64,000 nt of DNA from Brachionus manjavacas (lineage: Eukaryota > Rotifera > Eurotatoria > Ploima > Brachionidae): NCBI GenBank assembly GCA_019054805.1, contig JAHQIY010000012.1, forward strand, positions 744,001-808,000. The letters run 5' to 3'. The notes below the pieces were generated by a model. That model was not told the origin of the DNA, made no database searches, and saw only the letters and a list, made by a program, of their open reading frames with translations. A program made the translations under genes and the position numbers. The stretch's first letter is position 1. Every line of letters begins with the position of its first letter. Shown piece by piece: positions 16,262 to 44,989 of the stretch.

Positions 16262-18482
16262 CAGTGGTGTTCGGATTTAGTAATTTACGATAATTTACGT
16301 AAAAAATAGTAAATTTACCGAATTTTACGTAAAATATTGTAAATTTACGTAAATTTACAAAAGTAAAAAAACGTAAATTTACCAGTTTTTACGTAAAATT
16401 CGGTAAATTTCGAACATTTTACGTAAATTAGTGTAAAAAAAAAAATGTCCAAAAAATTGAAATAATTTGGCACTTTTTAAAAAAAATTGAATTTTTTATC
16501 CTTCAACATTTATTTTCAAAATTATGAATAAAAAAATTTACCATAATTTACGTAAATTTTGGTAAAATATAATAATTTTAATGGTAAAAAATAGTAAAAA
16601 ATGGTAAAAAATGGTGAAAAATTTAAATTAATTAAAGGAATATTTATTAACAAAAAATAACTTGATTAAATTGTTATTAAACATATACAATTGAGTAGAT
16701 TAACATTTTATTTTTTGATTTATCCATTTTGATTGAATTAGATGCCCTTTAAGAAAATTTAATACAAGCTAATATTTCGAACTAGTACATAAAAAAGATT
16801 TTGAAAGAAAAACGTGATACCATTAAAAAAAGAGCAAACAAGCTAGCTTTAAGTTGTAAGCTTACAAAATATATTCAAGTAAATTTATTTTCGAATAAAT
16901 TCTAAATCATTTAAAATTAAAACTTTTAATAGGATCAAACTATTTCAAATTTGGGCTGCTATAATTCGTCTGAAATTGTTAAAAACATTTTTTTAAAATT
17001 CAAAATTAAAATTAGCAGCTCGATTATAAGAAAATAAAGGTTTAAACACATTAATTATATTTTTAATGTGTTTAAACCTTTATTTTCTTATTAAATTATC
17101 GTAAATTATGGTATTATTTACATTTTTTAAATATAAAAAAAAATATCTTGAATAGTTTTAAAGCTTTTTAATTGTTTGACCAACCTCCTTGATTTTCTAT
17201 TACTTTAATTCTGAATCTCATAAGCTCCAAAGGCTAATCTGGTGCTTAAAACATTATAATTGTGATTTTAAAGAATTTATTTTCGTTGATGAAACAACCA
17301 TTTGGTTATTTGAACCTCCTTTGTATCACCTTAGGTACCCATCTGCATATCCAGACGCGTTTCCTTGTACTTCAAAAACAAAATCAAAGCTTAATATTTG
17401 GGAAGGTATATCATTTATGGGACCAACAAATTTAGCAGTAATTTATTTTCAAAAATATTACTAGAATTTTAAAAAATTTTATAACAATAGGTATTCACAT
17501 CGAATTTAGATTCGATACTGTATAGAGAAATATTGGCTCAATAATTATTGCCTTTTGGTGCAATAAATTATGATTTTTGGTTTAAAATTTCATCAGGATA
17601 ATGACCCCAAGCATAGATCTAAAATTTGTACGAATTTTCTAGAGAAAAATAACGTTTATTGGGTAAATTTTTCAAAAATTCAATAATAAATTTAATGTCA
17701 TTTTGAGTTTTTTTTTGCTTTTTTTTTCCAATTCTCAGAATAGTAAAGTTTGTTGTCAAATCAATTTTTTAAAAATATGTATCCTTTAACTCTCTAGTTC
17801 AATTTCATTAATTTTCCTCTATTTTAAACCATTTTATTACATTTTATTTTTTTAAATTTTTTAATACTATGATCATCAATTAGATTTAATTTTTAATATT
17901 AACCCAAAAACTATTTTATGGAATGTTCCAATCACATAACTTATCTTCCTGAAATTGTGCTGTTTAATAAGAAAGTTAAAAAATTGCGCGAGTAATAATG
18001 GATAAATCAAAATGGATAAATCAAAAAATAAAATGTTAATCTCCTCAATTGTATATGTTTAATAACAATTTAATCAAGTTATTTTTTGTTAATAAATATT
18101 CCTTTAATTAATTTAAATTTTTCACCATTTTTTACCATTTTTTACTATTTTTTACCATTAAAATTATTATATTTTACCAAAATTTACGTAAATTATGGTA
18201 AATTTTTTTTTATTCATAATTTTGAAAATAAATGTTGAAGGATAAAAAAAATTCAATTTTTTTTAAAAAGTGCCAAATTATTTCAATTTTTTGGACATTT
18301 TTTTTTTTACACTAATTTACGTAAAATGTTCGAAATTTACCGAATTTTACGTAAAAACTGGTAAATTTACGTTTTTTTACTTTTGTAAATTTACGTAAAT
18401 TTACAATATTTTACGTAAAATTCGGTAAATTTACTATTTTTTACGTAAATTATCGTAAATTACTAAATCCGGAACACCACTG
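16262..18482 (+). mobile_element. Tc1/mariner-type transposon with ~470-bp inverted repeats
   Basis: It is bounded by CAGTGGTGTTC...GGAACACCACTG and flanked by TA. The terminal repeats (16,262-16,734 and 18,010-18,482) are packed with gtaaatttacgtaaa words, themselves small palindromes. The interior keeps a transposase fragment at 17,189-17,665 with FIFVDETTIWLF (first Asp) and, in another frame, HQDNDPKHRS (second Asp), both typical of the DDE_3/Tc1 family. The third acidic motif is not recognisable and frames are broken, so this copy is dead. A deletion derivative is at 56,270-56,770 and an isolated end at 37,783-37,918. Confidence 0.88.
17032..17091. repeat. Perfect hairpin inside the Tc1 element
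   Basis: AATAAAGGTTTAAACACATT and its inverse, separated by an A/T spacer of about 12 bases, form a stem of about 23 bp. It lies just upstream of the transposase remnant. Confidence 0.7.
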
Positions 18483-19057
18483 TATGAGCATCCGAAGTTT
18501 GTGACATTTCTCTAAAATCGAGATTATACGTAACCTATTCTCCTGCAATTTATTTCTCCTTCTACTTCTATTGCAATCAATTTATAGATATTTCAATTTA
18601 ATTACCATCTTTATTAAAAACAAAAAGGGGATCCAAGAAATAAAGAAACAATTATTTGCTAAAACCTTAGCTTAAACATTTGAACCAAATCCTTTTTTTA
18701 TGCTTTTACAATTCTTATTATATAAACTATGAACAGTGTTCCGCCGCACAGAACGGCCGTTTTCTCTCACCCATTTTATTTAGAGTAAAAATTTTTACAC
18801 ACAACGAAATCTTTTAATTTAAACAACACTCCACGACCCAATAATTTTGTTTTTTAATTATTTAATTACATTTTTGATCGCGATATTAGCATATAGATAT
18901 TGTCAGCATTATCGAGTAGATTTCCGATCATTAAGTCCAATGATGCTTTTGAGGAATGAGAGCTAGCCAAGTGGGCTAGGATTTAAAATCTTGTAATAAT
19001 GGATAAATCAAAATGGATAAATCAAAAAATAAAATGTTAATCTCCTCAATTGTATAT
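17992..19057 (+). repeat. About 1-kb tandem duplication (unit 1, and start of unit 2)
   Basis: The unit beginning GTAATAATGGATAAATC at 17,992 begins again at 18,993. Unit 2 reaches 19,057, is interrupted by the 17.7-kb element, and resumes at 36,723 to about 37,668. Each unit contains one Tc1 inverted repeat plus palindrome arm A. The intact sequence in unit 1 at 18,040-18,065 shows the empty target of the 17.7-kb element. Confidence 0.8.
18483..18991 (-). repeat. Palindrome arm A, inverted copy 1
   Basis: Reverse complement of 15,755-16,261. It joins the Tc1 element exactly at the TA duplication, so the palindrome is symmetric about the element. Confidence 0.8.
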
Positions 19058-19870
19058 GGCAAGAATTTTTTTCTATTATATAATTTCAATGGTGCTTTTA
19101 AAGTTTAAAATGCCCGGCTTTTTTCGATTTATAGACAATTATTAATTGGTATTGATATAGCTAATTAGTCAAAAAATATGAAAATTAAGTCATTTTTGAA
19201 CTTTATCTTTTACTAGAGATAAATTTAATCAATTAATTTTTTATGAAATTTAAAAATTTTTAACAAGTAAAATTGTTAAGTTTTTATTGTTAGTTATATT
19301 AAAATTTTTTCATATAGATAAAATTTTATTTTTGGAATTTCTATCCTTATGATATTTGCTATTAAATAAATTTTTTGAATAATGAAAAAAGCATTATAAG
19401 AAACCTTTTTTAAATTTTCTGATTCCATAGGCATTGCATTTGTCTATAATTTTAATATAAAATAAAGTTATTGATTATCTTAGTTTATCAATATTATCGA
19501 ATATTCCGCAAACTTTCGTTTAGATTTTTGTTTGTTTATATTTAAATTAACCAATATAAAAATTTTATCAATTTTTGACGATCAGTTTTTTAATTATATC
19601 GATTTTTGCATGATCAACATTTTTGTTTCTAAAAAACCATTAAAAAGAATTTTTATCTACTTTTAAACATTCTTGGTTATTTTCCTATAATAACTTAAAT
19701 TAAAATTCTTAATCAAAATTAATTTTAGTATTTATAATAGACCATTTCAGCTTGAGCCACTCAAACGATTCCGTAACATAGAACTGTAGTAAAGTATCGT
19801 CGTTATCTCAACTTAAAACCAATCTGTTCAGCCGTCCAATGAGACTGAACCATATGTCTTAAGTAAGCTG
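19058..19870 (+). repeat. Outer left terminal inverted repeat
   Basis: Pairs with 35,821-36,722. Bases 19,058 to about 19,590 match the partner without a difference that I could find by reading. From there to 19,870 the match is patchy but resumes in CGTCGTTATCTCAA and CAGCTTACTTAAGAC-type blocks. Confidence 0.85.
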
Positions 19871-20379
19871 TCAACTTTTTTAAGAAACTTTTTGTAATTT
19901 TACACTAAACAATAGTAATTTTTCGAAAAATAAAATATAGTTTTTATAAAATATAAATAAAAAAATTTTATTTTACTTATTTTCCACTTTCCGGCGTAAA
20001 TTTTCGCATGTCAAAAAAATATTTTGAATTAAAAATAAACTTAAAATATTTATTATAATTTTTAAAATTAAAGATTGCTTTGTGTTAAATAATTGAAACT
20101 ATTAAGCTAAATTGGCGATTAAAATATTTTAGATTAATAAAAATTGATTAAAAATTTTTTTTAAAAATATTTTTTTTTAAATGTGAATAAAATCTGCTTT
20201 TAAATGTTGCTTCGTAATCAATCCAAATGAATTTTTACATTTTTGCCAGAAAATTTAATAATGTTTATTTCAATTGGATTACATTGTTTCATCTATTTGA
20301 GATTATCTAATTAAATTTACTTTAAAAATATCCAGTTCGATTTTTTATTATTAGAATCTTAAATTAAATATGGAAAATT

Positions 20380-21320
20380 TTACGTCACAGTTGCTATGCT
20401 GATGTAGGGAAAAATGCTAGAGTAAATCATGTCTTGCTGTTTTTGATTGTTTTTATTTACTAATAAAAAGCAGTCTTGTATAAAAGTCACAAGTCAAGTG
20501 CAAGTCAGGACTTTGACTTTTTTTAAAAAAAGGAATTAAAATATATAAAAAAATTATAAGTCTTGAATTTTATTATTAAGGGAAAAATAAAATTATTTGT
20601 TAAAATTTCTTTTTCAATGTAAATATTGAAACATGATTTTTTAAACAATTCACATAATTGACCTATTCTTGTTAAGTGAATTTAATAATAAAAAAAAAAA
20701 AAATTATAGATATTAATCAAACAAAATAAAAGAAATAAAATAATATATAAAAAATAAAATTTATGACTAGTAATTTTTAAATTTTTGAAACAAGTCGAGA
20801 CTTGTTATTTTTTAAAAATTTATTTTCAATCCAAGTCATACTTGGACTTGTTTTTGACTTGTTCAGATTTTTTTTCTGATTTTTATACAAGTCTGGTAAA
20901 AAGCAATAAAACAATAAACAAAAATTGAGTAAATTTATGCCACTGTTTTAAGCTCTCTTGGTGGCGATTAAAGTATTTTATTTCAATTTTAAAGATAAAT
21001 TAGATAATCTAATTAAAAGCATCTTTTTTAAACTTCAAACTTATTTATTAAAAATTAATAATATAAAAAAAATTTTTATTCCTTGAAAATAGCCTCAGCA
21101 TCTTTTTTAAGGATAAAAGTAAGTATAAATGCACTTGTTTCTTCTTCAATTACAAAATTTAGACCGATTACTTCCTCTTTTAGGCTTTTTGAGACTTTAT
21201 TGTCATCAAATTTATACCTGTTGTCTTCGCAATTTATGAATTTCTCCAATATGAAAAATAACTGCATTAAAATAGAATATATGTGATTCCAACCATTTGG
21301 AAGTATTTGAAGTATAAACA
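20380..21320 (+). repeat. Inner left inverted repeat segment
   Basis: The blocks AAAATGCTAGAGTAAATCATG (20,413-20,433) and the USP tail (21,076-21,321) pair in inverted order with 32,690-33,150. The terminal repeats therefore originally extended about 2 kb inward. The segment is interrupted by a MITE at 20,471-20,895. Confidence 0.7.
20471..20895. mobile_element. 425-bp hAT-type MITE in the left terminal repeat
   Basis: Ends are CAGTCTTGTATAAAAGTCA and, inverted, TTTTTATACAAGTCTG. Flanks are ATAAAAAG and GTAAAAAG, an 8-bp duplication with one mismatch, as for hAT elements. The interior has several CAAGTC/GACTTG words. A related CAAGTCAAGTCAAGTC patch lies at about 62,385-62,415. No coding capacity. 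Confidence 0.7.
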
Positions 21321-21321
21321 A
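21076..21321 (-). pseudogene. Degraded USP C-terminal copy in the left inverted repeat
   Basis: The fragment shares YKFDDNKVSKSLKEE and the IEE...ILKKDAEAIFKE end with the USP gene at 32,690-32,912. A deletion of about 33 bases removes the catalytic GH box, which in the right-hand copy reads KGHCVIYINPN. It has no upstream catalytic-Cys exon, so it cannot be an enzyme. Its position as the inverted partner of the right-hand USP 3' exon shows that the USP tail lies inside the terminal repeat. Confidence 0.75.
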
Positions 21322-21546
21322 TTTCTTCCCAGAAAAAAAAGACTTAAAAGTTGGCTATAAAATTAAACTATTGTCAATAAAATGATATTTTTATAGGACA
21401 AAAATTACTTAAATAAAAATAATAATTTGGTATAATAAATATTATATTTATTTATTTGTTAAATTTGATTAAATATAATTTAAAATATTTGATTAAATAA
21501 AACTAAAAATATTAATAATATATAAAAAAAATGAAATTATTATGAC

Positions 21547-22618
21547 CTAAAACTCTTCTGTATCAGATTCCGGCAATCTAGCTTCACGTTTATATTTTTC
21601 AATAAAAAATTGATTTTGCGCATCTTTGTTTATTTTGAATCGCATATCTCGTGATCCGTCAACATTTTTTCCATGTTGAAGATATTTTTTTCTATTATAT
21701 TTTTGTCATGTTAGGCGTTCCATCCATATTGAAATCACGACATTCCAATAAATCACGCAACAAAAAACCATTGAATTCTGGCTCAATTAATGTGCTTTGT
21801 AGATTTGGAAGAAAATTGTTTCTTGAACTCTTTAAATTTAAAAAACTTTTAATTTTAAGGCTTGATAATTAAAAACAATTTAAGTTACTGTCTCCATTCT
21901 TATTGAATTTGGATCTTTATTTACCTTGAAGCTTTTGTTTCTGCTATGATCAACCTATAAGATAAAAATAGAATAACTTTAAAATTTCAAAACAAAAAAA
22001 AGTACATTTCCTTCAACTTTTACATAACTAGTACTTGTGTTTTGGATCTTAGATGTGCCATAATTTTTAGCAGGATAATTTTTTTTTTCTTCATTAATAA
22101 TTTTAATTGCCTTTTTTTCTTCTAAATCTCTACACACTTCATTTACATTTAACTTTTTAGACAAGATTTCCTTTATTAAATAAAAAAAATGTTTTAAGAC
22201 TGAAAATGATAAAATAAGAGTACCTGTTGCCTACAAACTTTATCAAGTTTTATTTGCTGGGTTTCATACTTTTCCAAAAGATTAAAATAAAATCTTCTAA
22301 GTTTTTTAAGTTTTTCGTCTTGAATTAAAATAATTGCTGCAAAGTCCATATTTCTTTCGATGAGTTTGGTTGAATTATCTTTATTTTTATGAGAACCACC
22401 AAAATGAGTTTCTAAAACTGAAACATTATTAGAACCTTCACATAGATTTTCAAAAGCTTGATCAATGCTGCTTAAACATTCCTGGTCATCGAATAAAAAA
22501 TTGTCATGCGGAACACAATGTTCTGAATTAAAATTTCCTCCTTAATATCACCATTTTTCATTTTTTCCTTAATCTTGTCTACCACATCAATAAAATCATC
22601 ACAAACATAAGGTTTCAT
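21547..22618 (-). pseudogene. Third leftward gene of the 17.7-kb element, multi-exon, two frame breaks
   Basis: Exon blocks can be read on the minus strand from an ATG at 22,618 (MKPYVCDDFIDVVDKIKE). A frame shift or a 29-base excision occurs at about 22,540. The block then runs to KLDKVCRQQ near 22,225, followed by a gtactc donor. The next exon runs from EILSKKLNVNEVCRDLEE to YVKVEG near 22,010. A further exon reads VDHSRNKSFKVNKDPNS and joins in phase to SSRNNFLPNLQ (about 21,860). After DGTPNMT an extra A in an A5 run shifts the frame, and the protein would end LPESDTEEF at 21,547. Charged, Lys/Glu-rich and Asn-rich, with no domain I recognise. The paired breaks sit at homopolymers, so sequencing error is possible. 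Confidence 0.55.
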
Positions 22619-22938
22619 CGTTGCATTTGAATCGAGAAATAGTTGTTTTTTTAATTCATTTTTAAAGAAAATTTTAAATAATCTTAAAATTTATAATGAA
22701 TGTAAAAAAACTTGTATGGACTCAAAAAAGTTAACAAGCAGTTTAGACTAATTACTGGGAAAGGCACTTGCATCCTTCACTTTTTAATTTTTCAACATGC
22801 TTTAAACACGTTTTAGTTTAAAAAGAGAGTTTTTAATTTGTTTAAAAAACAATAACTGATTTTTAAACTATTAAGGTTAAATAACGAAACAAAAAATTAA
22901 ACAACAAAATTAATTTATTATTTTAAATAATTACATGA

Positions 22939-23337
22939 TTATTGATTAATAATTTGATTTTCTAAACATTTAATTTTGCTGTCTTTTTCAATCACAATTG
23001 CCTTTAAATGCTCAACTTCTTCTTCAAGCTTCCTGATATTTGGATTAATTATTATCAAATCAGAAGGTTTTAAAATAATCGAATAAAATTGATTTTTTGT
23101 TTTTTCTTTAAACAAATTTCTTGTTTTACCACCTTTTTTTTTAAACCAAGATCGTTTAATTGATACAAATTTTGAGGTTATATTTTTTTCTAATGACGAT
23201 GAAAGCGGATTTTGAAGCTTTAACTTGAATTTACTTTCGATATGCATTGATAATTCAATTAACAAACGTTTATTAATTGTATAATTATTCATTTTAAGAC
23301 TCGTGAAAATAATTTCTTTGCCTATTTTGATTTCCAT
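22939..23337 (-). CDS. Coiled-coil protein of the 17.7-kb element (132 aa)
   Basis: A single intact frame from the ATG at 23,337. The N-terminal half is basic (IKRSWFKKKGGKTRNLFKEK at about residues 60-80). The last 35 residues (IRKLEEEVEHLKAIVIEKD and the rest) form a coiled coil with Leu/Ile at heptad spacing. A BEN-like or DNA-binding role is conceivable from the basic region plus coil, but no signature supports it. It lies between the other two leftward genes, in the same orientation, about 230 bases downstream of the C2H2 gene. Probably an accessory or regulatory protein of the element. Confidence 0.6.
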   Translation of the reverse strand: MEIKIGKEIIFTSLKMNNYTINKRLLIELSMHIESKFKLKLQNPLSSSLEKNITSKFVSIKRSWFKKKGGKTRNLFKEKTKNQFYSIILKPSDLIIINPNIRKLEEEVEHLKAIVIEKDSKIKCLENQIINQ

Positions 23338-23567
23338 ATTTTTAATTTAATTCTGAAATTTAGATTCTTTGATTAAATAGCAATTTTTGCTGGTCTACAA
23401 GAATTCATAATCTTTTTGTTGAAACTTCAGGCTAATAACTCACGTGAATATTTTTTGTTAAAGGCTTTAAAAAAAATGAATATAATAAAAATTTTATTTA
23501 AATTTAAATCAATAGATAAATATTTTGCTAAAATAAATTTGTAAAATTTGATAAATAAAAAAAATAA

Positions 23568-24465
23568 CTAATAAAATTTGCTTCTTTTAAATTCATCGAA
23601 TTGTTCTGGTTTATTGTAGCTTTTTTTGATCTTTAGATTAATTAATCCCTTTTCATCGCTTCTCGATTTAGCGTTTTTTTGACAAATTATCTCTGATTTT
23701 ACCGTTTCTTCTTTTGTAACATTCTAAATTGAATTTTTTTTACAAAATATACAAAATTACAATTTTTTTTTTTAAATACTATCATTGCCAAACTTGAATA
23801 TTTTGATTCAACCGATAAAGACTTGATTTCTTTAGTAAAAATATTACTGATGCTATTATTGCATAAGGAATTTGCTTGAAATTGTCTTGTATTCAAATTT
23901 TGATTGTCTGTTTTTTCAAGATCATTCATTTTTAAAATTCGCACTGATTGACCTGTCGAAGAATGCAAATTTGAACTTATTGGTGAGTAAGATGTGATTT
24001 TATCTAATTTAAGCAAGTTGAGATTTTCATCTTGATAAAACAGTGAATAAAAATCAGTCTGTGTTCCTGAGCTTTCGGTTTCAATCTTATTAACATGCAT
24101 TTCATCCAAATTTAAATTCAAACTACCCAAATCACCTAAACTCTTACTTCTTATTAAAAGTTTTGATCTGAGATTTGGGTTGAGATTCAAATTATTATTT
24201 TGAATGAATAAATTTGGAAATTGTATTCCACATTCGTAATTCTTTTCAATCTTCATTTTTTTAGGGTCATTTTTAATTTTATCAAGATGAAATCTTGTAT
24301 AGTGAGCTTTAAGTCGATCTGAAAAGTCTGTTTTCCATTTTGGATTGCAATAAAGACACTGATACTTTTCCTGAAAGAAACACATTTATATTATGCTTTT
24401 TTTCATAAATAATAAATTACGCTGGTGGTAGTGATGTTTGATGAGCTACTATTTGTTCTTTTCAT
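23568..24465 (-). CDS. C2H2 zinc-finger accessory protein of the 17.7-kb element, three exons (263 aa)
   Basis: Exon 1 is 24,465-24,421 (15 codons, donor GTAATT). Exon 2 is 24,370-23,780 (197 codons, acceptor TTTCAG, donor GTATTT). Exon 3 is 23,723-23,568 (51 codons and TAG, acceptor TTTAG). All junctions are phase 0 and the joined frame has no stop. Residues about 18-43 are a C2H2 finger (YQCLYCNPKW...LKAHYTRFH; Cys-x2-Cys, His-x4-His). The middle is Asn/Leu-rich and low in structure; the C-terminus is Lys-rich. A DNA-binding accessory protein that recognises the element ends or regulates its transcription is a fair inference. The intact splicing frame suggests recent function. Confidence 0.75.
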
Positions 24466-27454
24466 TCTTGAATATATAATCTTTTATGAAAATCTTTCTC
24501 GTTTTTTATAGAAAATATAATTTTAAAAGCTAAGCAATCCTTCAAGAAGTTGATTATTCTTAATTTTTCAACATGCCAATTTCTAACAAATAATCAAATT
24601 TTTTATTGTGAAATTTAATAAAACAAAATGGTTGCTTTAAAATTTTATTTAAAAAATTTTTTTAGATTTTTTTTGACAACTCTAACATGAATTTAAAACA
24701 ACGCCCAGCGTTGTGCATGTCTATACCAAGCATATATAGCCAATCTATAAAAAATTCTTTGTTTTTCTTTAAAATTAACAATTGACCCATCATATCTGAT
24801 AACTATTATGAAAAAAATAACACATTAAAAAAAACTTTAACGAAATTAATGTATTGTTTTGCGCATTTTTTTGTATTAAGCAGATTATAATGCGCGCTTA
24901 AAGGAGATTTTCAATATTTCATTGGCTATTACCATGATGAATTCTTACGAATTATTGAAAATCGACTTTAAACCCACGTTAACAACGGTTTAATACATTT
25001 TTTGCAAAAATAATTTTTTGAAATATTTTTAAGAAAGAATGGTAGTAAGAACTATGCGGTAAAGTAATACTCTAATATTAGTAGGCGAAACTACTATGCG
25101 CAAGCAGTAAGGATAATTATAACAAATTTATTTTGAAAAATCCATTCATTTTTAGAATTTTTGAATATGCTGGTCCTATTCCTGCAATACAAATTATATC
25201 TAGTTCGGAAAAATTTTTGTTACTCAAATGTTTTTTCTTTAACATTTTTTAAATAGTCAAAAATAAAAAGAATAAAGGCTTATTATTTAAATAAATCAAC
25301 TATCCTTTTCGGAATTAATGAATTCATCTTATATTAAAATAAAATTTCAAAAGATTTCACAACTAAAATTTTCATTTTGCCTAAATTCTAAAATTAGACC
25401 TTATTAACAGTTTAAGAAAAAATTCATTTATTTTATATCATATAAATTTTTCTTAAAATAGTTTTTTTAAGCTAGCAACCGTACGCTTGTACGCTTCACT
25501 GGTACGGTGTAAATTTACAATCACTGTTTGATTCAGAACTAATAATTTTTGGATAAATTTAATTTTAAGTTAATTTATTTTCCTGAAAACTTTTCAAATG
25601 TTAATGGTGAAGGAGAAGAAATTGATCTATTCACAGGAATAATATATTTTTAATAATAGATTCATTTTAATTTTTTGGTTTTAAATAAAAATTAAATTTT
25701 TAATAAGTTTTTTTTATAATTTGATTAAAAAGCTGAATCAAATTTTTATTATCGATGTATGAAACAGTGAACGATGAAAATACAAAACCATTTTTCGATT
25801 TCTTAAATTTCTTTTCAAAACTCTTCAATATTTTGACTCTAATTGAGAAAAAAATTAAAACCAAATTACTGTGCTTCAATGTTTTTTTTTACGAGTTTTG
25901 AGAAAATGCTGACCTTCCTTTTAATTTAAAATAAAATATAAAATTAACAATAATTTCATAAAACTTTAGATTTTGAAACAATTAAATTTATAAACTGTAA
26001 TTTTGATAATCAAAAAAAAAAGACGCGTAACGTGTTTTAATTTTTCCGTCAGTTAGAGAAGAAAACTATCAATCATTTAGTACAAAAAAATTCAACGTGC
26101 AACGAAAAAATATTAAAAAGTTTGTTTCAAAAGCAAAAACAAATAATATCAAAAATACTGCTGAATGAAGTTTATATTAGCGGTTTTATAGAGATGAGAT
26201 GACGGTCATTTAATATTAAGCTTTATTCAAAAAGCATCAAATGACATGAGCTCAATTCCTTTAAGCGATATAAGTCAAAAGCAATCAACATTCATGTAAA
26301 AAATTGAATAAAAGACTTTCAACTAACATAATAAAAAATATAAAATCCCGAAAAATATTGACAAAATATTTTTCAATCGTTTTGTCAATTTCATCGCAGC
26401 AAATGGATTTTTTGTAAAACAAGTCTTCTTCAAAGCATTTAAAAAAATTCAAGCAATCAGAAATTCTTAAGTTTTTGTAACAATTGTTTCAGCAACCATC
26501 AAACATATTCAAAAACATGAATATGTCAAATAAATATAACAATTATTTCATTATTTTATCAAAATTGATTTTTTATTTATTTTGTGAACTTTTTTATTTA
26601 TTTTATCAAATTATGTTTTTATTAGGGATCTTATTATATTTGATGCTTATTGAAAAAACATTCAAAAGAAGTTATTTCCAAAGTTAAAGCGGTGTTGCGC
26701 ACACTGCTCTTGTGCGCTGGGTTCACAAGTTAAAAACGTCCCCTGGAAAACTCTTTTTGTTGTTTATTAGAAATAAGTAAAAATATTAAGAAATGTAAGA
26801 AATATTTTAAGAGCTCAAAAATTTAAAAATAAAATGTTTTAAAAAATAAAAAGTTTAAAAAAGTTTAAAAAAAATAAAAATTTACTTTTGTGAAAATCAT
26901 TAAACCTTTGTTTGTCTTGTTTTAAAAACCTTTTTGTCTCCTTTGGGCTTTTTTTATTTTAATAGTTTACTCAAAAGAATTTTTTCAATGGTGTAAGTTT
27001 AATTGTATTTTGATTAACAAAAATTTGCTAGAAGTGCAGCAAGGTAATAAAACTTTAAATTACTATCCGGGTGATTTGTGTATTCTTTTATAGGTAAACG
27101 ACAGTTTACGCCATAAAAATGACATAAATTACATACTAGTAATTTATCGAGCATATTAAAAGGCTTGAAAATTCTCTTACAAAAAAGGAAGAAATATTAA
27201 ATAAATTATTTTTTTCCATTTTTAATTTTTTTAATTTATTTCCTCGTCTAAATCAAATTAATTTTTGTAGTTGTTCAATTATTTTTATTTAGTCACTTTA
27301 TTCAAATTAAATCTATATTAAATCATAAGACAAATAAAGAGACAATAATCTTTTAAAAAGGCTATCCCAGTATAATCAAAAAAGAATAAAAACAATTTAA
27401 AAAAATTTTACAAATTTCACAAAAATTTTATACTAAAATTTTAGTTAACTGAAA
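24466..27454. other. Central spacer of the 17.7-kb element between divergent gene sets
   Basis: About 3 kb of A/T-rich DNA separates the leftward and rightward genes, so it should hold both promoters. It has three GC-richer islands: CGCCCAGCGTTGTGCATG near 24,705, ACCGTAC...GTACGGT near 25,477-25,510, and GCGCACACTGCTCTTGTGCGC near 26,702. The last two can form hairpins. Bases about 26,330-26,470 read RFVNFIAANGFFVKQVFFKAF in one frame, weakly like a hAT transposase N-terminal region. I would not call that a gene. Confidence 0.5.
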
Positions 27455-30400
27455 ATGAATCGATCTGATATAAATGAATTCATTGAACAAAATCAAGCTT
27501 TTTTGATAGAAGATGGACATCAAATTCTTTTATTGATCGAAGAAATTTAAAAAATTTTGTTAGAAATTTTTTGCTTATTTTATCTGGTAATAAATTATCA
27601 AAATTAATATTCAAATTACTTTTTTTGCAAAATTTTATAATAAAAGGAAATGATATCAATGGAATGCTTAATGAAGTTTTGTATGATTTTGAAAAAAATT
27701 CATTACAATCAAAATACAAAATAGCACTTCGATATTTTTCTCGAATTTACAATGAAGCTAAACCAAAGGATAAGCACCAATATTTGTATCCTTTACGAAT
27801 TTCTGGATTAAAAAAAAAAGAAGCTGAAAGTCTTAACTTTTTTTCGACTTCTTACATGTGGCAAAAATGTTTGAATAGAAATATAAGAAATATTGGTAAT
27901 TTTTTATTTCCATTCTTGTAATACATTCTTGAAAAATTAATAAAATAATTCATAGGTGATAAAACGTAAAATTTGCACAGCATTAAAAAAGATTCCCAAT
28001 ACGCTCTTTAGAGTTTTACAAAAACCTATTTACGAGTCTTTGTTAAGAAATCAAAAATTGTTAAAAAATTGGATCATTTTAAAAATTTTTTTTTCAAATT
28101 AGATAATTAAAAAAAATTCCAAACTAAATTTTAAATTTTTAAAGGAGGCAGATATAGGTTGTCAAGTTTTTTTGTTGATCAAATTGAAAATCACATGAAA
28201 AGTATTAGTGAAATAGCAGCTAATAGATTTTTAAAAAAGAAACAAACTAACGCTTATTATACAAGCACATCAATGTTAAAAGCATACCAAAATTTCCAGT
28301 ACAAAGATATTTCATATTCGTCTTTTTATAAATATGTTGATGAAAAGTTCAAAAAACCACATAGAATCTCAGATTTATGTGATTACTGTGAAAGAATAAA
28401 GTAAATTTTTAATATTAATACAAAAATTTTCTTTGTTAAAAACAAATTTAAAAAGGGTTTAAAGCAACAATTATTTAAATCTGCTTTAGAAAATGGATAC
28501 GATGGACCTGATGACTATTCTTTAGTCAAAGAATTTATTATAATTAAAAAAACAAGGTGTTAATTGAAAAATTTAGAAATAATCAATTTTAATTAAAAAT
28601 TTTATTTCTTTTTCCAGAAATGATCTTTTAGGCCAAATTGAATTGTTTTCAAAAATTGAAAGTATTAACCTTCATTTTGATATAGCTAATAGGCAAAGAG
28701 ATTCTTATAATTTAATGCGTTTAAATTTGGAACACGATTACATATTAATAGACATGGATTGGAAGCAAAAAATAATGATCGGTTTGTATATTTATATTTT
28801 TTGTGTATTCTTAAAGTTTGATCTATCGAAGTTTTGGGCATTGTGAATTTTGGTACAAAAGTCAAAAAAAAAAAATTAAAAATGCCAAAGCTTAAGTTCT
28901 GAATGACCAAATCATGTTCTATAAATCGCAGCAACTGATACATCCTATGTACCAATAATATAATGATTCTTCAAATCACTGCAATAATTCTGCAAAATTC
29001 AGAAAATTATGAATATTAGTACAAAAAACAAAAACAAAATATAAAAAAGCTAGATCTTTAATCTAGAAAGACTAAAACATGTTCTGAAAATTGTAGCAAC
29101 TGAAACATCTTCTTTACTACCCTTTAAAGTTGAGTTGGACTTTTAATATAATATAATATCCCAAATGCAGATTTATTGCAGTGTTTTGCAGAATTAGTAT
29201 ATTGGTGGTACAAAGGTTATTCCAGTAAGAAAGTAAATTTTTAAAAAAATCATTCTTTTAAAAATTCATTCAAATTTTTTTTCTTTTCTTTTTCTCAGTT
29301 TTTACCAAATTTTACAAAATCCTTTCAGAATTATTGACTTTGCAAAAAATGTATTGATTTTTTAAAAAATGTTGGCAATTTTCTTTCCTTTTAATTGAAT
29401 AACCTGAAATATCGATTATTTCGGTAAATTATTTGTATTTGGCTTTTAAGAATTTACAATATTTCACGTGAATTTACGTTTTTAGAATTTCATTAATGAT
29501 AAGTTAAATCACTTGAATTAACGTGAAATATTATAAAATATTTAGAGACTTGCTTTAAATTCTTGACAAAGAATTTTGAGACTTGCTTTAAATTTAAGTA
29601 TTAATTTCATGATTAACATAATACCTGCAATTATAACTGATTTTATTAATATCGAATACAATTTCGTAATTTTTCAGATTAAAAATTAAATAAAATAAAA
29701 AATTCAAGAATTGAGAATGTTGAAAGATAGTGCAACTTTTTTATTTTAAAAGAATTTTTTTTTTCTTTTTTTCTATTTTTCAATGGAGCAAAAGTCAAAA
29801 TTATTTTACTCTTAGAGTAGTATGCATGAGTTTACGGTATGTAAAAGTATTTTTTCTAATATCTTTTATTAACTTTATTCTTAATTTAAAAATTTAAAAA
29901 TTTTTGTTCAAATTTATTTGAAATTCACAAAACCACTATTTTTTTGATCCAAAATAATGCAAATAACGGGTTTATCCTTTCATTTATTCTCGAATGAATA
30001 GTTTTTTTCTATTGATGCAAGCCGCAATCGATTTTAGTAATTATTTTTATTTATTTATTTAAATTAAAATAAACTGAAATTAAGTAACTCATAATCTCTA
30101 ATAATTTGAAATGAGAAAAAAGCTTTGCATCCGCTTTTATTTATATTTATTAATTAAAGGTCTTAGTCCAAGGCAGCCTAGTAATGAATACAGAAACCAA
30201 GTATCAAGAACTTTATTTGGTTTTGGGATTTATTTCAAAAAAAATGATACTGTTGAGTGCATGAATATTGATTTGATTTCTTGTTTGCAAAACAGCGAAA
30301 CTGGAGCAGAAGTAGTTAAAAACTTTAAGTAATTTTTGCTTGTTTTCTAAAAAAATTTTTCTAATAATTTTAGTAGATTTTTAAGAAATTTAGATGTTTT

Positions 30401-31399
30401 CAAAAAAATTGAAACAAAAAAATACATTATTTGGGCTGATACTGGAACTCACTTTAGGTGTTCTGAAGTCATCCATTATTTATTTCAAGAGCTTTCAAGA
30501 GATAAAATAAAAGTATGTTTGAACTTCTTTGTAGAAAAACACGGTAAAAATAGTCGAGATCAACATTTTTCCGCTGTTTCTAATTTTATAAATCAAGAAT
30601 CTCTGGTTAAAAAATTAACTTGCTCTCAAGATATTGCTGATGCAATTAATAAAAATCAACTAATTTCAAATATTTATCGACAAAAAATTAAAAAACTTAA
30701 ACCAATCCAAACTCTTGCCTATGTTGTCAATTTTACCAATTTTGAAGCTAACTTATCTTTTAAAAAAGTAAAAATATCACAAATTATTACAACTTTTTTA
30801 ATAATGACGCAAACGAGCTTCGCAGTGTAATAGTTTCAGATTTGCGTATTTCAAAATTGGTTGAGTACGAAGATTCATTACAGAATATAATAAATAATGA
30901 ATTAGATTGTACAACGATAGAAAAAAAAGTAATAGAACCAAAGCTTCCAAATATAATTAGAAAAACAAAAATGCTAAAAAAAAATCTACGTTCTTTGCAA
31001 ACAAATCAAAATTGCGAAATAAATGCCTCGCAAGAGTTGAGCATTGTATTATCGAATTTGGATGATTTAGAGGAAAAAATTGATAATAATTGGTGTAAAG
31101 AAGAATGCAAAGACTGTACAGCGACTATCCGATTTAGATTAACTGAATTAACATGTGAAACCAGAAAAAACTTAGTTGATGAATTAAAAAGACATCAGCA
31201 TCCGTCATCAAGAAGTAATCAGTACAAAAAAAATAGATCAAAAGATGAGGCAATGAATGAGTTGAAAGCGCATTATTTAAAAAATCATAGGAAAGATAAT
31301 TTAACTTTCGAAAACTCAAATATATTTTGTAAAAAATGTAGCCAAAAATTTTTATGTTTACAAAGTTTAATAATGCATAAACTTAGACAAAAGCATTAA
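27455..31399 (+). CDS. Multi-exon transposase with C-terminal C2H2 finger (17.7-kb element)
   Basis: Consistent exons are 28,145-28,400, 28,456-28,556, 28,618-28,781, 30,160-30,328 and 30,374-31,399. Canonical GT/AG junctions in phase give ...KKTR|NDLLGQ and KIMI-G|LSPRQ. Upstream coding starts at the ATG at 27,455 with less certain junctions. Motifs: a Cys-x2-Cys pair (DLCDYCERIK), YILIDMDWKQK (candidate first Asp), IIWADTGTHFRC (second Asp) and FFVEKHGKNSRDQHF. The HGK-x3-D pattern resembles RNase-H-fold transposases of unclassified metazoan elements. The last residues carry a finger, FCKKCSQKF...HKLRQKH. One frame break near 30,800 at a T run, one near 27,520 and one doubtful junction at 28,400 remain. 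The long fourth intron contains a MITE. Confidence 0.65.
28842..29230. repeat. MITE-like repeat B, copy 1, in a transposase intron
   Basis: The start TGTGAATTTTGGTACAAAAG, a central GCCAAAGCTTAAGTTC and an end block with TTGCAGAATTAGTATATTGG recur inverted at 33,150-34,125. It lies in the intron between 28,781 and 30,160 and so need not damage the mRNA. Ends and target duplication were not fixed. Confidence 0.6.
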
Positions 31400-31707
31400 T
31401 TTTTTTTTTAAATAAATTTTATATTAAAATAATTTTAAAATGTTTTATTATTTATTTGGGATAAGAAGTGATATTTTTATCAATAATATATTTTTTGAAT
31501 TAAATTTGAATTTAACATTAGAAAATGGAATGAAATCCATATTTTATCTTTTAATTTACCTTTAAATGGAAAAATTAAAATTAAAATATATACTTTATTC
31601 AATTATTTTTGTTCATAAATTTGATGAGAAATTAACTATTTTTTCTTTAATTTGTAGACTTATATTAGATTTTAAAAAAATTTTAAATATTAATATTAGA
31701 ATTCAAA
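31400..31707. other. Spacer between transposase and USP genes
   Basis: About 310 A/T-rich bases, with AATAAA-like words just after the transposase stop. It probably holds the transposase 3' end and the USP promoter, but no TATA box is convincing in this composition. Confidence 0.35.
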
Positions 31708-32912
31708 ATGGGCTTTTTTGAAGAAGTTGATAATCGAAATATAATTCATGAGGATAAAATCAACAGTTCTGATTCAAATAATCATAAAAAAGTTAACGAA
31801 AAACAAAAAAGGGAAAAAATTAAAGCAAATAAAGTAGAATTTTGTGGAATTAAAAATTTGAAATGTAACTGTTTTTTGAACTGTATCATTCAATTGTTTT
31901 TTTTTATACCTATAATTCGGAACAAAATTCTACATTTCGAATATTTAACAGATACTTCCTTGTTTTTGAAGGAATTACGAACTATGTTTTTACAGCTCAA
32001 AAATAAAATAGGTCCAGTTGATCCAACCAAACTAATCAACTCTTTTGGTAACGAAAAAATTTGGTTTTCACAACAACAAGATGTAAATGAATGTTTCAAA
32101 AAAGTAAATATTTAAGATCATTATAAATATTGAAACAACTCACTAATTTTTTTAGTTTATTGAAAAATTGGAAATAATTAACTTAATTGAATATTTTTTC
32201 GATACGATTATGGATTTATTTAAAGGAAATATTAAAGTTTGCTCCTTAAATTAATTTGGAAAACGAAAAAATTTTTTTTAAACCTTTTATTTAAGTCTAT
32301 TTTAGTTAGCGAAGAAATTGGTTATAATTCAAATACATTTGATGATTTTATAGAAATAAATTTAGTTGTTGATGGAAAAAAAAATAGTATAAATGTATAA
32401 AATTAAATTATTTTTTAATATTTTTAGTTTATGAATCTTTATGCGAACTACAACAAGCTACATATTTTTCAGGAGAGGATCAAGTTATAATTGAAAATCA
32501 CGGACCTAAAGATTGCATAAAATTTCAAAAATTCAAAAAACTTCCTCCGATTTTGAATTTTTGTTTATTAAGATTTAAATATGATGAACAATCAAAAAAA
32601 CAAATTAAAATCAATGATAAATTTGAATTTCCGGAAATATTAGATTTAAATAAGTACGTTATAGAAGGAGAATCTCAAATATTCTATTTATTTGCCGTAA
32701 TTGTTCACATTGGAGAAATTGACAAAGGACATTGTGTAATTTATATCAATCCGAATTGCGAAAACAACTGGTATAAATTTGATGACAATAAAGTCACAAA
32801 AAGCCTAAAAGAGGAAGCAATTGGTCTAAATTTTGGAATTGAGGAAAAATCAAGTGCATATATGCTTACTTATATCCGTAAAAAAGATGCTCAGGCTATT
32901 TTCAAGGAATAA
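31708..32912 (+). CDS. USP7-like ubiquitin-specific protease carried by the 17.7-kb element
   Basis: A peptidase C19 domain that removes ubiquitin from proteins. Exon 1 (ATG at 31,708) encodes a Lys-rich leader and the Cys box, FCGIKNLKCNCFLNCIIQL; the catalytic Cys aligns with NTCYMN of ordinary USPs. A QQQDVNECF block follows. The next exon (from about 32,157) reads FIEKLE...LFKGNIK, like the LFEGK segment of USP7. The third ends VVDGKKN at 32,388 and joins in phase to IYESLCELQQA (intron donor GTATAA). The last exon has LPPILNFCLLRFKYD, then the His box KGHCVIYINPN and NNWYKFDDNKV. KEEAIGLNFG and SAYMLTYIRKK match the end of USP7/USP47 domains. One junction near 32,245 is unresolved. TRAF and UBL domains of USP7 are absent. 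Confidence 0.8.
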
Positions 32913-33150
32913 AAAAAATTAAATAAATAAAGTTGTTTTTTTTAAATTATTAATTTTTAATAAATAAGTTTCATGTCTAAAAAAGATACTTTTAATTAGA
33001 TTATCACATTTATTCGTTAAATTGAAGTAATACACTTTAAACGCCACAAAGTGAGCTTAAAACATACTTGCATAATTTTACAAGTTAAAAAAAACAATCA
33101 AAAATATCAAAACATGATTTACTCTAGCATTTTTCCATCCATCAGTAAAC
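32690..33150 (-). repeat. Inner right inverted repeat segment
   Basis: Inverted partner of 20,380-21,320, covering the USP 3' exon and about 240 bases downstream (CATGATTTACTCTAGCATTTT at 33,112-33,132). Confidence 0.7.
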
Positions 33151-34125
33151 AGGCCAAAATACTGATTCTGCAAAATCCTGCAAAATTCAGAAAATTGTGA
33201 ATTTTAGTACAAAAGAGTTTTGCAGATTTATTGCAGAGTTTTGCATAATCAGTATTTTGGTGGTACAAAGAATGTATCAGTTGCTAAAATTTACAGAACA
33301 CTTTGGTCCTTCTGAACTTAAGCTTTGGCACTTTTAATATTTTGTTTTTGATGGGTCTTGCCTGTTATGTGACCAGTGACTTTATGTCGATTTGGTGACC
33401 AGGTATTTTTTCTGACTGGTCACATATTCACTGGTCACCTAATATGTGATCAGGCAAATTTTCTTTATTTGGTAAAAATGTTTATAAATAATTTTAACCT
33501 GGTCACCTAATTAAACATTTGGTCACATAAATTTCAATTAAGTTTGATAAAATTTAATTGTAAATATAATAAAATAATTTCAATTGCAACTATACTTGGA
33601 CATTAGGACATGAGAGGTTCAAAACGGTCCGAAATTCAAAGTTATTTGGATGAATTCACTTGGAGGTTCAATAATAATTTAAATATTCATCGAATATGGT
33701 GTAATAATTTAATGTTGAATATTATAGCTAAGTATTTTAGGCCTGGTTCTAAGTAATTTAATAAAAAAAGCTCCAATTGCTTCTGAAGCGACACAGTCTG
33801 CAAAAATGAGCGTGGTGTAAAGCAACACATCGCAAAAATGCATAAATACTTTTTTATTGAATTTTTATAATTTTAAATTAATATACAAATTGGTCACGTA
33901 AATAAAAAAACTGGTCATATAAATTTAATAACTGGTCACTAAAATAATAAAATTTTTTTTAAAAAAAATTCATTATTTTAATAGAAATATTGCCTGGTCA
34001 CATATTAGGTGACCAGTGAATATATGAACAGTCAGAAAAAATACCTGGTAACCAAATCGACATAAAGTCACTGGTCACATAACAGGCAAGACCCCTTTTG
34101 ATTTCTGTACCAAAATTCACAATTC
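33150..34125. repeat. MITE-like repeat B, copy 2, split by repeat A
   Basis: Inverted relative of 28,842-29,230: it contains TGATTCTGCAAAATCCTGC, GAACTTAAGCTTTGGC and, after the inserted MITE, CTGTACCAAAATTCACAATT. It is interrupted at 33,353 by the hAT-type MITE. Confidence 0.65.
33353..34094. mobile_element. 742-bp hAT-type MITE with ~105-bp inverted repeats
   Basis: Ends are GGGTCTTGCCTGTTATGTG and its inverse. The terminal repeats are rich in CTGGTCAC/GTGACCAG words. Flanks TTTTTGAT and CTTTTGAT are an 8-bp duplication with one mismatch. No transposase. A decayed relative with CTCTGGTCACATATTTGGTG lies near 54,843-54,862. Confidence 0.75.
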
Positions 34126-35820
34126 CATTTAGCTCGACACAGATAAATCAAATAAATAATGATAATTTTTAATTCAATTTTTAAATCAATTTTTATACAC
34201 AATTATGAAAAAATTCTATTTTATTCTTTAAATTTATAATTTTTAATATTGTAATTTTTGTTTGTTTACATTTTAAGAATGAAAAAACTATGTAATATAA
34301 ACTATTCATTTTTTATTTTTATCTATCAACTATGCCTCTTGATTTGAGGAAAAAACTTAACTTTAAAATTCTAAAAACATAATTGTTTCTTTATTTTTAA
34401 TTTTATCATCGCCGAGTCTGGCGTTATTTTGAAATAAATTAAATTTAGTGAAATTAAATTATTTAAATTTATTTAGAAAGACAAAAATGTATTTTATTTA
34501 ATTTTTTTTTACATCACCCTCGCGTTAGTTACTTAATAAATAAATAAAAATAAAATAAAAGCTATTGGATGTAAAATTTTTCAATTTAATTAGAATGAAT
34601 TTTCATCATCATGCTCTCATCTTTAACTATCTGCCTGTTTTTTTAGCCACTAAATAGAGGTATTCAGAGACTTAGTTAAGGATTAATCAATTAAAAGAAA
34701 AAAGAAGATTTGATGGGTACTTTATGGATTTAAAATAAATTTTTTTTATGGACAACTTCTTTGATTTAAAAAAAATCTTTTAATTCAAAAAACTTTTTTG
34801 ATTTAAGAATTATTTCCAAAAATAACATAATTTTTTCACCATATTCTAAAATGATTGATTTGGAAAGTGAATCAGATAGGAGTTATATTAAAAGAATGGA
34901 AACTCAAGCATTTGCTAGATTTAGATAAAGCCTTTATTAAGCCATTTCTTTTTGGCCGGACCAAAATGAAAGAAAAAGGCGTCTAGCATTTTAAAGTTTA
35001 AAAGCCATTATAAGATAAATTTAACTTTCGAACAAAAACAAAAGTATTTTTTAAATAGAAAAAATTTTTGATAAAATCGTTTTAAATAAAAAATTGGACT
35101 TTAATTTTTTGATTGTTCTAAAAAAAATTTTCTGCTTCTAAATAAAAATAAAAAATGCAATCAAATTTTACATCTTGATTAATAAAAAAAATATACAAAT
35201 GATGTCAAACAATTTATTTTTTGGCGACAATTTTATTTTATTATAACTCTTTTTTTTTATTCTTAATCACTCAAGTGGCGTTATTTTTTAAGATACAAAA
35301 AATAATAATAATAATAATAATATTCAATATTTTTTATATAAATTAAAAAATTCAACCAATTGTGTAAAGAATAAATATAATTCTATATATTTTTTGAATC
35401 AGTAAAATAAATAAATAAAAAAAATTTGATACCATTTTTTTATTTTATGTGAAATGATCAATTTCGCATCAGCAGCATAAAAAAAAACCCATTGAATTAT
35501 ATCAACCTAAAATATTCAACATTATAGTCAATTGAAATTATATCAACATTATAATAATTTTTCATTTTTTAAAAAAACACAAAAACGCAAAAAAATTTTA
35601 TTTTTATTTTTTAATAATCCTTAAAGGAGGTTAATTAAATTCAATAAGTAAATAAATATCAACCAATATTTTTAATATTTCTCTAATGCAGACATCACAT
35701 ATAATAAATAAATTTTTTATCATGTCCTGAATTACATGTCGATAAAATAAAATATTATTTATTTTAATATTTTAAAAATTTGACTTTTGATTTTGATTAC
35801 ATGTTTTTTAAAAAATGTTT
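34126..35820. other. Non-coding right part of the 17.7-kb element
   Basis: A/T-rich without a gene. There is an (ATA)n microsatellite at about 35,303-35,325. A LINE-tail-like patch, CGCCGAGTCTGGCG followed by TTTGAAATAAATTAA, lies at about 34,410-34,440. The length excess over the left repeat suggests further insertions. Confidence 0.45.
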
Positions 35821-36722
35821 ACAGCTTACTTAAGACATATCGTTCGGTCTCATTGGATGGTTGAACAGTTTTGTTTTAAATTGAGATAACGACGATGCTT
35901 TACTCCATCTGTGTTACGTGTTACGGAATCGTTCGAGTGGCACAAGCTGAAAAAGGACAAAGAGTTAATAATACCGAGTAAAAGCAATTTAAAATAAAAC
36001 TATTTTCGAACTAAAATTATTTTCAAAGATCTAATTTAAAAAATAAAATTAATTTTTGATTAAGAAATTTAATTTTAGGTTATTATAGATTGAAAAATTT
36101 AAGAATGTTTAAAAATAGAAAAAGATTCCTTTTTTTTTAATCTAAATTTAGAAAGTAAAATGTTAACCATGGAAAATTTTTTATAATTAGAAAACTGGTC
36201 GTCAAAAATTGATAAAATTTTTATATTGGTTAATTTAAATATAAACAAACAAAAATCTAAACGAAAGTTTGCGGAATATTCGATAATATTGATAAACTAA
36301 GATAATCAATAACTTTATTTTATATTAAAATTATAGACAAATGCAATGCCTATGGAATCAGAAAATTTAAAAAAGGTTTCTTATAATGCTTTTTTCATTA
36401 TTCAAAAAATTTATTTAATAGCAAATATCATAAGGATAGAAATTCCAAAAATAAAATTTTATCTATATGAAAAAATTTTAATATAACTAACAATAAAAAC
36501 TTAACAATTTTACTTGTTAAAAATTTTTAAATTTCATAAAAAATTAATTGATTAAATTTATCTCTAGTAAAAGATAAAGTTCAAAAATGACTTAATTTTC
36601 ATATTTTTTGACTAATTAGCTATATCAATACCAATTAATAATTGTCTATAAATCGAAAAAAGCCGGGCATTTTAAACTTTAAAAGCACCATTGAAATTAT
36701 ATAATAGAAAAAAATTCTTGCC
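35821..36722 (-). repeat. Outer right terminal inverted repeat
   Basis: Inverted partner of 19,058-19,870. Identical over the outer ~530 bases and diverged further in, with an extra ~90-bp block near 35,950-36,040 absent from the left side. Confidence 0.85.
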
Positions 36723-37156
36723 ATATGTTTAATAACAATTTAATCAAGTTATTTTTTGTTAATAAATATTCCTTTAATTAATTTAAATTTTTCACCATTT
36801 TTTACCATTTTTTACTATTTTTTACCATTAAAATTATTATATTTTACCAAAATTTACGTAAATTATGGTAAATTTTTTTTTATTCATAATTTTGAAAATA
36901 AATGTTGAAGGATAAAAAAAATTCAATTTTTTTTAAAAAGTGCCAAATTATTTCAATTTTTTGGACATTTTTTTTTTTACACTAATTTACGTAAAATGTT
37001 CGAAATTTACCGAATTTTACGTAAAAACTGGTAAATTTACGTTTTTTTACTTTTTGTAAATTTACGTAAATTTACAATATTTTACGTAAAATTCGGTAAA
37101 TTTACTATTTTTTACGTAAATTATCGTAAATTACTAAATCCGGAACACCACTGTAT

Positions 37157-37782: not shown

Positions 37783-37918
37783 TTACGTAAAAACTGGTAA
37801 ATTTACGTTTTTTTACTTTTGTAAATTTACGTAAATTTACAATATTTTACGTAAAATTCGGTAAATTTACTATTTTTTACGTAAATTATCGTAAATTACT
37901 AAATCCGGAACACCACTG
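37783..37918 (+). mobile_element. Isolated terminal repeat of the Tc1 element
   Basis: 136 bases matching the last part of 18,347-18,482, ending GGAACACCACTG and followed by TA. It joins directly to arm A without the rest of the element. Confidence 0.8.
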
Positions 37919-38039
37919 TATATTGTGAGATATCGTTAAATATCAAACACTGGTTTTCAAAATGTTAACATGTCACCAATGTCTATATAAAATGTAAAAT
38001 TTGTTCCACTCTGTTTGAATGTATTTAAGAACCAAAATT

Positions 38040-44930: not shown

Positions 44931-44989
44931 CATCTCAAATGTCTAGCTTATTCTGAATACATTATTTTTAATAATGTTCGTCCCCTGCA

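What the first reader, a model, noticed from the sequence alone, without database searches (positions are those of the whole stretch)
19058..36722. A 17.7-kb cut-and-paste-type transposon carrying a USP deubiquitinase and divergent accessory genes
Seen: matched GGCAAG/CTTGCC ends, a perfect 4-bp ATAT duplication, the empty site in a nearby duplicate, and two divergent gene sets with in-phase introns. Known: ubiquitin-like proteases of other types (OTU, ULP1) occur in some DNA transposons. I know of no described family with a USP7-like enzyme, an HGK-type transposase and a 4-bp duplication together. Inference: the peptidase may protect the transposase from degradation or counter host control.
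Basis: partly seen in the sequence, partly recalled or inferred. Interest (0 to 1): 0.93.

Follow-up and report, generated by a model that had tools for sequence, protein, structure and literature searches.

The report
Rotifer transposon carrying a deubiquitinase gene
A 17.7-kb jumping DNA element in what appears to be a Brachionus rotifer genome carries, next to its transposase, a gene for a ubiquitin-removing enzyme related to USP7 that has been kept by selection, which suggests that the element uses the host's ubiquitin system when it moves.

Summary
19,058-36,722 is a complete DNA transposon: GGCAAG/CTTGCC ends, ~690-bp inverted repeats, an ATAT duplication and an exact empty site next door. 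A second full copy (99.6%) and a diverged third (12.7 kb) sit elsewhere between ATAT duplications. Many ~142-bp MITEs share the ends and 4-bp AWWT duplications. The transposase has an integrase-like fold and DDE-type motifs. Downstream lies an intact four-exon, USP7-like USP gene with its catalytic residues. Transposase and USP also lie together in B. plicatilis, B. calyciflorus and the diverged family; the USP's dN/dS is 0.15, the transposase's 0.14. So the USP is part of the element, not a passing capture. Corrections: the transposase gene here is broken by 1-bp deletions, so this copy probably moved in trans; not all introns are in phase; the divergent layout seems peculiar to this lineage. 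AWWT duplications match published Sola2 elements (PMC3627910), but Sola membership could not be tested by sequence. Prior art: OTU/Ulp1 in Ginger, VTD deubiquitinases in Helitrons, one C19-transposase protein.

The parts
19058..36722 (.). whole transposon, 17,665 bp
   Evidence: GGCAAG/CTTGCC ends, TIRs, ATAT duplication, empty site, second copy at C4 with the same ends
19054..19057 (.). left target site duplication ATAT
36723..36726 (.). right target site duplication ATAT
19058..19741 (+). left terminal inverted repeat, 684 bp
   Evidence: 94.4% to the right TIR
36030..36722 (-). right terminal inverted repeat, 693 bp
17992..18992 (.). tandem copy of the target with the empty site (ATAT at 18,053-18,056)
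   Evidence: 0 mismatches, 3 gaps to the joined flanks
27455..27586 (+). transposase exon 1 (ATG at 27,455; 1-bp deletion near 27,500 relative to the C4 copy); its 3' border read by hand against P0001
   Evidence: tblastn of P0001, alignment of copies
27647..27895 (+). transposase exon 2; its 5' border read by hand against P0001
28145..28400 (+). transposase exon 3, SDLCDYCE motif; 1-bp deletion near 28,390 shared with the C4 copy
28456..28556 (+). transposase exon 4
28618..28781 (+). transposase exon 5, first conserved Asp (ILIDMDWKQK)
28782..30159 (+). long intron holding repeat copies
   Evidence: GT/AG ends and phase; repeats D14 and D16 lie in it
30160..30328 (+). transposase exon 6
30374..31399 (+). 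transposase exon 7: second Asp (IIWADTGTHFR), third motif (EKHGKNSRDQHFS), Cys/His-rich C-terminus; 1-bp deletion near 30,770 relative to C4
31708..32103 (+). USP exon 1, MGFFEEVD start, Cys box GIKNLKCNCFLN
   Evidence: Pfam UCH 4.1e-13, USP7 alignment
32156..32236 (+). USP exon 2
32296..32386 (+). USP exon 3
32428..32912 (+). USP exon 4, His box KGHCVIY, Asp in KFDDN, stop
   Evidence: Pfam UCH 5.9e-25, USP7 E 4.6e-30
22939..23346 (-). conserved accessory ORF X1 (KRSW..KGG..R..FK motif)
   Evidence: 34% to the N-terminus of B. calyciflorus P0005 (E 1.5e-7), 31% to a frame in the C41 element (E 8e-8)
23699..24385 (-). accessory ORF X2 with a C2H2-like zinc finger (motif read by eye)
   Evidence: open frame; also in C4 and, with stops in several, C22 copies
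21547..22690 (-). further minus-strand ORFs of the accessory set, function unknown
21073..21234 (-). inverted duplicate of the USP 3' end
   Evidence: 91% complementary to 32,754-32,915

Best explanation
The feature is a large DNA transposon with a DDE-type transposase, found in Brachionus rotifers. Its kind of transposase (for this broken copy supplied from elsewhere, inferred) recognises GGCAAG-ended inverted repeats, cuts the element out and joins it into AWWT sites with a 4-bp stagger. Ends, duplications, empty site, further copies and MITEs are shown; the cutting chemistry is inferred from fold and motifs. The USP is a lasting second gene of the element, probably taken from a USP7-like host gene before B. 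plicatilis and B. calyciflorus split (inferred, if inheritance was vertical). Most likely role, inferred: an active deubiquitinase that removes ubiquitin from the transposase or from repair proteins at the cut ends, so that the transposition machinery escapes proteasomal degradation while it works. Odds by step: mobile element 0.98; USP an integral, selected part 0.9; active deubiquitinase 0.8; role in protecting the transposition machinery 0.55.
Against: No biochemical or expression data. The window and C4 transposase genes carry 1-bp deletions; C4 also lost about 424 bp across the transposase end and USP start; C41 has stops and a frameshift, and Lys in place of the Glu of its third motif; so no intact autonomous copy was seen. 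USP is missing beyond its first ~130 bp in the C22 cluster and is a short remnant in the fetched part of C13, so not every copy needs it in cis. The gene models P0001 and P0003 lack the Cys box, perhaps through gene prediction. No substrate-binding domain was recognised. Tree support for one origin of the element USPs is 88/91, not starred, on seven rows.
Confidence: 0.55

Rival explanations
1. The USP serves against host control rather than for the transposition machinery: it removes ubiquitin from histones or silencing factors in the germ line.
For: Selection on the USP; its own start codon rather than a fused domain, which suits a diffusible factor; PMC9741609 (passages) speculates on germline escape for transposon deubiquitinases.
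Against: Nothing here separates it from protecting the machinery; no rotifer silencing data were at hand.
Confidence: 0.25
2. The USP is an inert passenger, a captured host gene carried by chance.
For: Some copies lack it (C22 cluster, C13 remnant).
Against: dN/dS 0.15 between two families, intact triad, same position after the transposase in two families here and in gene models of two other species.
Confidence: 0.08
3. On classification: the element is a member of the Sola superfamily (Sola2), so that only the USP is new.
For: 4-bp AWWT duplications are those given for Sola2 in PMC3627910 (ATAT, AAAT, ATTT; section 11); Sola2 elements there also carry a second gene (Fanzor1).
Against: No sequence link could be tested; Sola2 TIRs in that section are 12-21 bp against 684-1,870 bp here; no Pfam model recognises the transposase core.
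Confidence: 0.5
4. On classification: the transposase belongs to a DDE superfamily not yet named.
For: 24 relatives scanned against Pfam at E up to 10 gave no convincing transposase model (25 of 26 families shown; TniQ at 0.19 in one member); named hits of three protein searches are Brachionus, apart from USP-only hits.
Against: Repbase was not available; the AWWT duplication points to Sola2.
Confidence: 0.35

Closest known systems
Sola2 DNA transposons (PMC3627910, section 11 read)
   Same: 4-bp AWWT target duplications (ATAT, AAAT, ATTT); some carry an extra gene (Fanzor1)
   Different: TIRs of 12-21 bp there, 684-1,870 bp here; no USP in the section read; sequence kinship not testable here
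Ginger1 DNA transposons (PMC2836005, passages seen)
   Same: integrase-type transposase, 4-bp duplication, a ubiquitin or SUMO protease (OTU or Ulp1)
   Different: CCGG/CCGT duplications and TGTNR ends there; protease is a C-terminal domain of the transposase and of another family
VTD deubiquitinases of Helitrons (PMC9741609, passages seen)
   Same: a transposon-borne deubiquitinase, proposed to protect proteins needed for transposition
   Different: another deubiquitinase family, a domain within the Helitron protein of rolling-circle elements
Trichomonas vaginalis XP_001314237.1 (named in PMC2836005)
   Same: Peptidase C19 (USP family) with a transposase
   Different: transposase_11 domain, one fused protein; no element described in the passage
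USP7 deubiquitinase
   Same: nearest USP; catalytic Cys, His, Asp and oxyanion Asn kept
   Different: 350 aa, catalytic core with about 45 residues before it; USP7's extra domains (recalled) are absent; 35% to the host USP7 over the 202 columns compared

Membership tests
Sola (Sola2) | 4-bp AT-rich target duplication AWWT | tested here: met
   C12, C4 and C41 elements ATAT; 13 of 17 MITEs AWWT, 4 of 17 imperfect; 117 of 169 ends; 19 of 21 pairs
Sola (Sola2) | transposase converges with Sola transposases in profile searches | not testable with these tools
   no Repbase or Sola sequence at hand; three protein searches returned no protein named Sola
Sola (Sola2) | DDE catalytic domain of RNase H fold | tested here: met
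   on relative P0016; shared by many cut-and-paste superfamilies, so weak
Ginger1 | CCGG or CCGT target duplication | tested here: not met
   ATAT and AWWT
Ginger1 | TGTNR termini | tested here: not met
   GGCAAG termini
Ginger1 | OTU or Ulp1 C-terminal domain | tested here: not met
   a separate UCH (USP) gene instead; no OTU or Ulp1 in the seven ORFs scanned
USP7-like peptidase C19 | catalytic Cys, His, Asp of USP | tested here: met
   alignments to USP7 chains
USP7-like peptidase C19 | N-terminal TRAF (MATH) domain of USP7 (recalled feature) | tested here: not met
   about 45 residues before the catalytic domain; Pfam finds UCH and UCH_1 only in the exon 1 ORF at E up to 1
Polinton/Maverick | DNA polymerase B and capsid genes (recalled features) | not tested
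   no dedicated search was made

The most novel reading that the evidence does not exclude
A DDE transposon superfamily of its own, or a deep Sola branch, in which a captured USP7-type deubiquitinase has become a lasting second gene, at least since B. plicatilis and B. calyciflorus split if inherited vertically: a transposon that carries its own ubiquitin-editing helper.
Probability: 0.35. Interest if true: 0.76.

Novelty: new variant of a known kind. Interest (0 to 1): 0.63.

Why it matters
Deubiquitinases of several unrelated families keep turning up on DNA transposons, and why is open. Here is a case with a catalytically complete USP, found in two families of one genome and in gene models of two other Brachionus species, with a dN/dS as low as the transposase's, together with defined ends, a defined target and many tiny non-autonomous copies (388 end matches, most not inspected). 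That makes the idea that such enzymes help transposition directly testable. It also corrects a record: the B. plicatilis protein named 'ubiquitin carboxyl-terminal hydrolase 7' (P0001) is a gene model of this transposon family, not the host USP7.

Tried and rejected
Rejected: chance inverted repeat or segmental duplication (empty site, further copies, MITEs). Rejected: Ginger1 (wrong duplication and ends). Rejected: host USP beside a dead transposon (same pair at another locus and in other species). Led nowhere: Rfam scan of the window, 0 matches; viral contigs, 73 stretches matched a pattern, none a relative; Pfam on transposase ORFs and relatives, only UCH and one SAP domain convincing; three protein searches gave no named transposase superfamily; Bao et al. 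2009 (Sola; recalled) is not held. Hermes and P-element transposases appear lower in both Foldseek lists; absence of other families from the VIA rows proves nothing. My first exon model was wrong in three places: a false exon at 27,981-28,041, a false intron at 30,768-30,817 and a missed intron at 27,587-27,646; corrected from P0001. The interval C3:1,980,160-1,993,837 looked like another large element, but its left end looks like a MITE. Assigning the species as B. manjavacas failed: two searches and PMC10395877 passages gave no assembly size.

Literature on novelty: search 23 (0 papers), 51 (24 papers, one listed), 68 (2 papers) and 91 (33 papers, one listed) showed me no transposon with a separate USP gene; the library holds open-licence papers only and most of those listed I saw as listings. 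PMC6431247 passages mention OTU in Helitrons and ubiquitination motifs in Burro. PMC7943196 and PMC6555955 (passages on rotifer transposons) mention neither Sola nor, in the first, ubiquitin.
Full report
What is there. The window lies at G000:C12:744,001-808,000 of a 114.17-Mb, 61-contig genome. The transposase is 84% identical to a Brachionus plicatilis protein, from which I infer a Brachionus near that species; that it is B. manjavacas is a recollection only.

Ends and insertion. The element starts GGCAAG at 19,058 and ends CTTGCC at 36,722, between ATAT words. Its inverted repeats align over 684/693 bp at 94.4%. The target lies in a tandem duplicate: the neighbour copy 17,992-18,992 matches the joined flanks with 0 mismatches and 3 gaps over 1,004 columns. 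Searching the genome with the left 533 bp gave 14 matches: the two ends here, the two ends of a second copy at C4:232,128-249,405, 9 pieces in one C22 cluster and one weak match on C1. The C4 copy has ATAT on both sides, different flanks and 63 mismatches in 17,183 aligned bases; its largest gap, 438 columns, lies across the transposase end and USP start.

A diverged family. A protein search of the genome with P0001 gave 60 matches. On C41 transposase and USP exons lie in the same order as here. That element runs from GGCAAG at 33,570 to CTTGCC ending at 46,282, ATAT on both sides, 12,713 bp, TIRs of 1,870 bp at 99.9%. Its genes are decayed: stops, a frameshift, and Lys for the Glu of the third motif, although its TIRs are nearly identical, which fits movement in trans (or TIR conversion).

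MITEs. The pattern ATGGCAAGNNTTTTTTTCTAT with up to 2 mismatches occurs 388 times against 12 for the reversed control. Of 20 small windows fetched, 17 show both GGCAAG and CTTGCC; 13 of 17 have a perfect 4-bp duplication (9 ATAT, 3 AAAT, 1 ATTT), 4 of 17 do not. These windows were chosen from a list that required AT before GGCAAG. Without that bias, GGCAAGTTTTTTTTTCTAT occurs 169 times, control 0, and 117 of 169 are preceded by AWWT. Among the 100 rows listed there are 21 plus/minus pairs 60-400 bp apart; 19 of 21 carry reverse-complementary words, as a true duplication demands, against a shuffled mean of 6.8 and maximum of 15 in 20,000; that search required AWWT at both ends. Among the rows listed I count 21 such pairs by hand; 16 have AWWT at both ends, 14 of these 16 agree, and the other 5 cannot be read from the calls. 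The MITE ends match the C41 TIR over 24 identical bases and the window TIR over 20 at 90%.

State of the window's transposase gene. The window has 1-bp deletions near 27,500, 28,390 and 30,770; the second is shared with C4 and absent from C13 and C41. C4 has two further single-base indels near the 3' end. So neither full copy has an open transposase frame as assembled: both moved with enzyme from elsewhere, or base-run errors exist. No intact copy was found; not all loci were fetched.

USP. Four GT-AG exons give a 350-aa protein ending in TAA. Pfam UCH: 4.1e-13 and 5.9e-25 for its two larger ORFs. For the last exon the best PDB matches are USP7 chains (E 4.6e-30), then USP28 (8.5e-19). Catalytic Cys (KCNCFLN on GATCYMN), oxyanion Asn, His (GHCVIY on GHYVVY) and Asp (KFDDN on KFDDD) are kept (which residues are catalytic is recalled). 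The start MGFFEEVD is kept in C41 and B. plicatilis. P0001 (B. plicatilis, named USP7) and P0003 (B. calyciflorus) are gene models that run from this transposase into this USP; both lack the Cys-box stretch. Between window and C41, over gap-free segments that I chose, dN/dS is 0.153 for the USP (194 codons) and 0.138 for the transposase (192 codons); pN/pS bootstrap ranges are 0.21-0.38 and 0.15-0.31; dS is 1.34 and 0.87, so the ratios are rough, and decay in C41 biases them upward. A seven-row tree groups the element USPs beside the host USP7, support 88/91, not starred. USP remains lie on C6 and C2. USP is missing beyond its first ~130 bp in the C22 cluster and a short remnant in the fetched part of C13.

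Accessory set. Minus-strand ORFs lie at 21.5-24.4 kb. X1 is related to the N-terminus of B. calyciflorus P0005, a model that continues into the transposase (34%, E 1.5e-7), and to a frame in C41 at 42,411-42,157 on the transposase's strand (31%, E 8e-8). So X1 is an old part of the element, and the divergent layout is probably a rearrangement in this lineage (inferred). Its function is unknown.

How it works. Shown: insertion with a 4-bp AWWT duplication, precise ends, several families, MITEs, co-occurrence and selection of the USP. Inferred: strand cutting by the DDE site and deubiquitination for transposition. The Ginger authors proposed that such proteases activate repair factors (PMC2836005, passages); the VTD authors that transposon deubiquitinases prevent degradation of proteins needed for transposition (PMC9741609, passages). 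This element fits both and proves neither.

Novelty. The kind is known. New, as far as searches of an open-licence library show, is a separate USP7-like gene held by selection in an AWWT-duplicating element. Sola2 is the best candidate superfamily on its duplication, untested by sequence.

Noticed in passing
G000:C52, C4:3,711-22,749, C16:2,076,588, C28:833,163, C27:50,081, C14:4,773, C61:35,889: A different short USP (UCH model positions 2-160, frames mostly of 274 aa) occurs in many similar-scoring copies, several close to contig ends; perhaps a subtelomeric or mobile multicopy USP family.
   Followed up: no
G000:C22:500,000-548,000 (L011-L016): A cluster of truncated copies, partly as ~6.2-kb repeats, carrying the left end and minus-strand genes at about 90-95% identity, without most of the USP.
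   Followed up: partly
L010 around G000:C4:244,500: The deletion in the C4 copy joins the transposase C-terminus to the USP near NKVEFCGIKN; read by eye the junction looks in frame locally, though indels lie upstream.
   Followed up: partly
window 33,353-34,094: 112-bp inverted repeats 95% alike around an ORF piece (RSEIQSYLDEFTWRFNN) that recalls Merlin/IS1595 transposases (recalled motif): perhaps a nested element.
   Followed up: no
window 62,427-62,632: Matches the tail of B. plicatilis model P0002 (57-77%), which may be a retroelement stretch joined to a transposase model.
   Followed up: no
window 43,720-44,940 / 51,416-52,636 / 9,407-10,474: A ~1.1-1.2-kb repeat in three copies at 95-96%, two of them inverted around 6.5 kb.
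   Followed up: no
window 15,631-19,053 and 36,723-37,921: The target region is itself a set of direct and inverted duplicates, mostly at 97-100% identity.
   Followed up: partly
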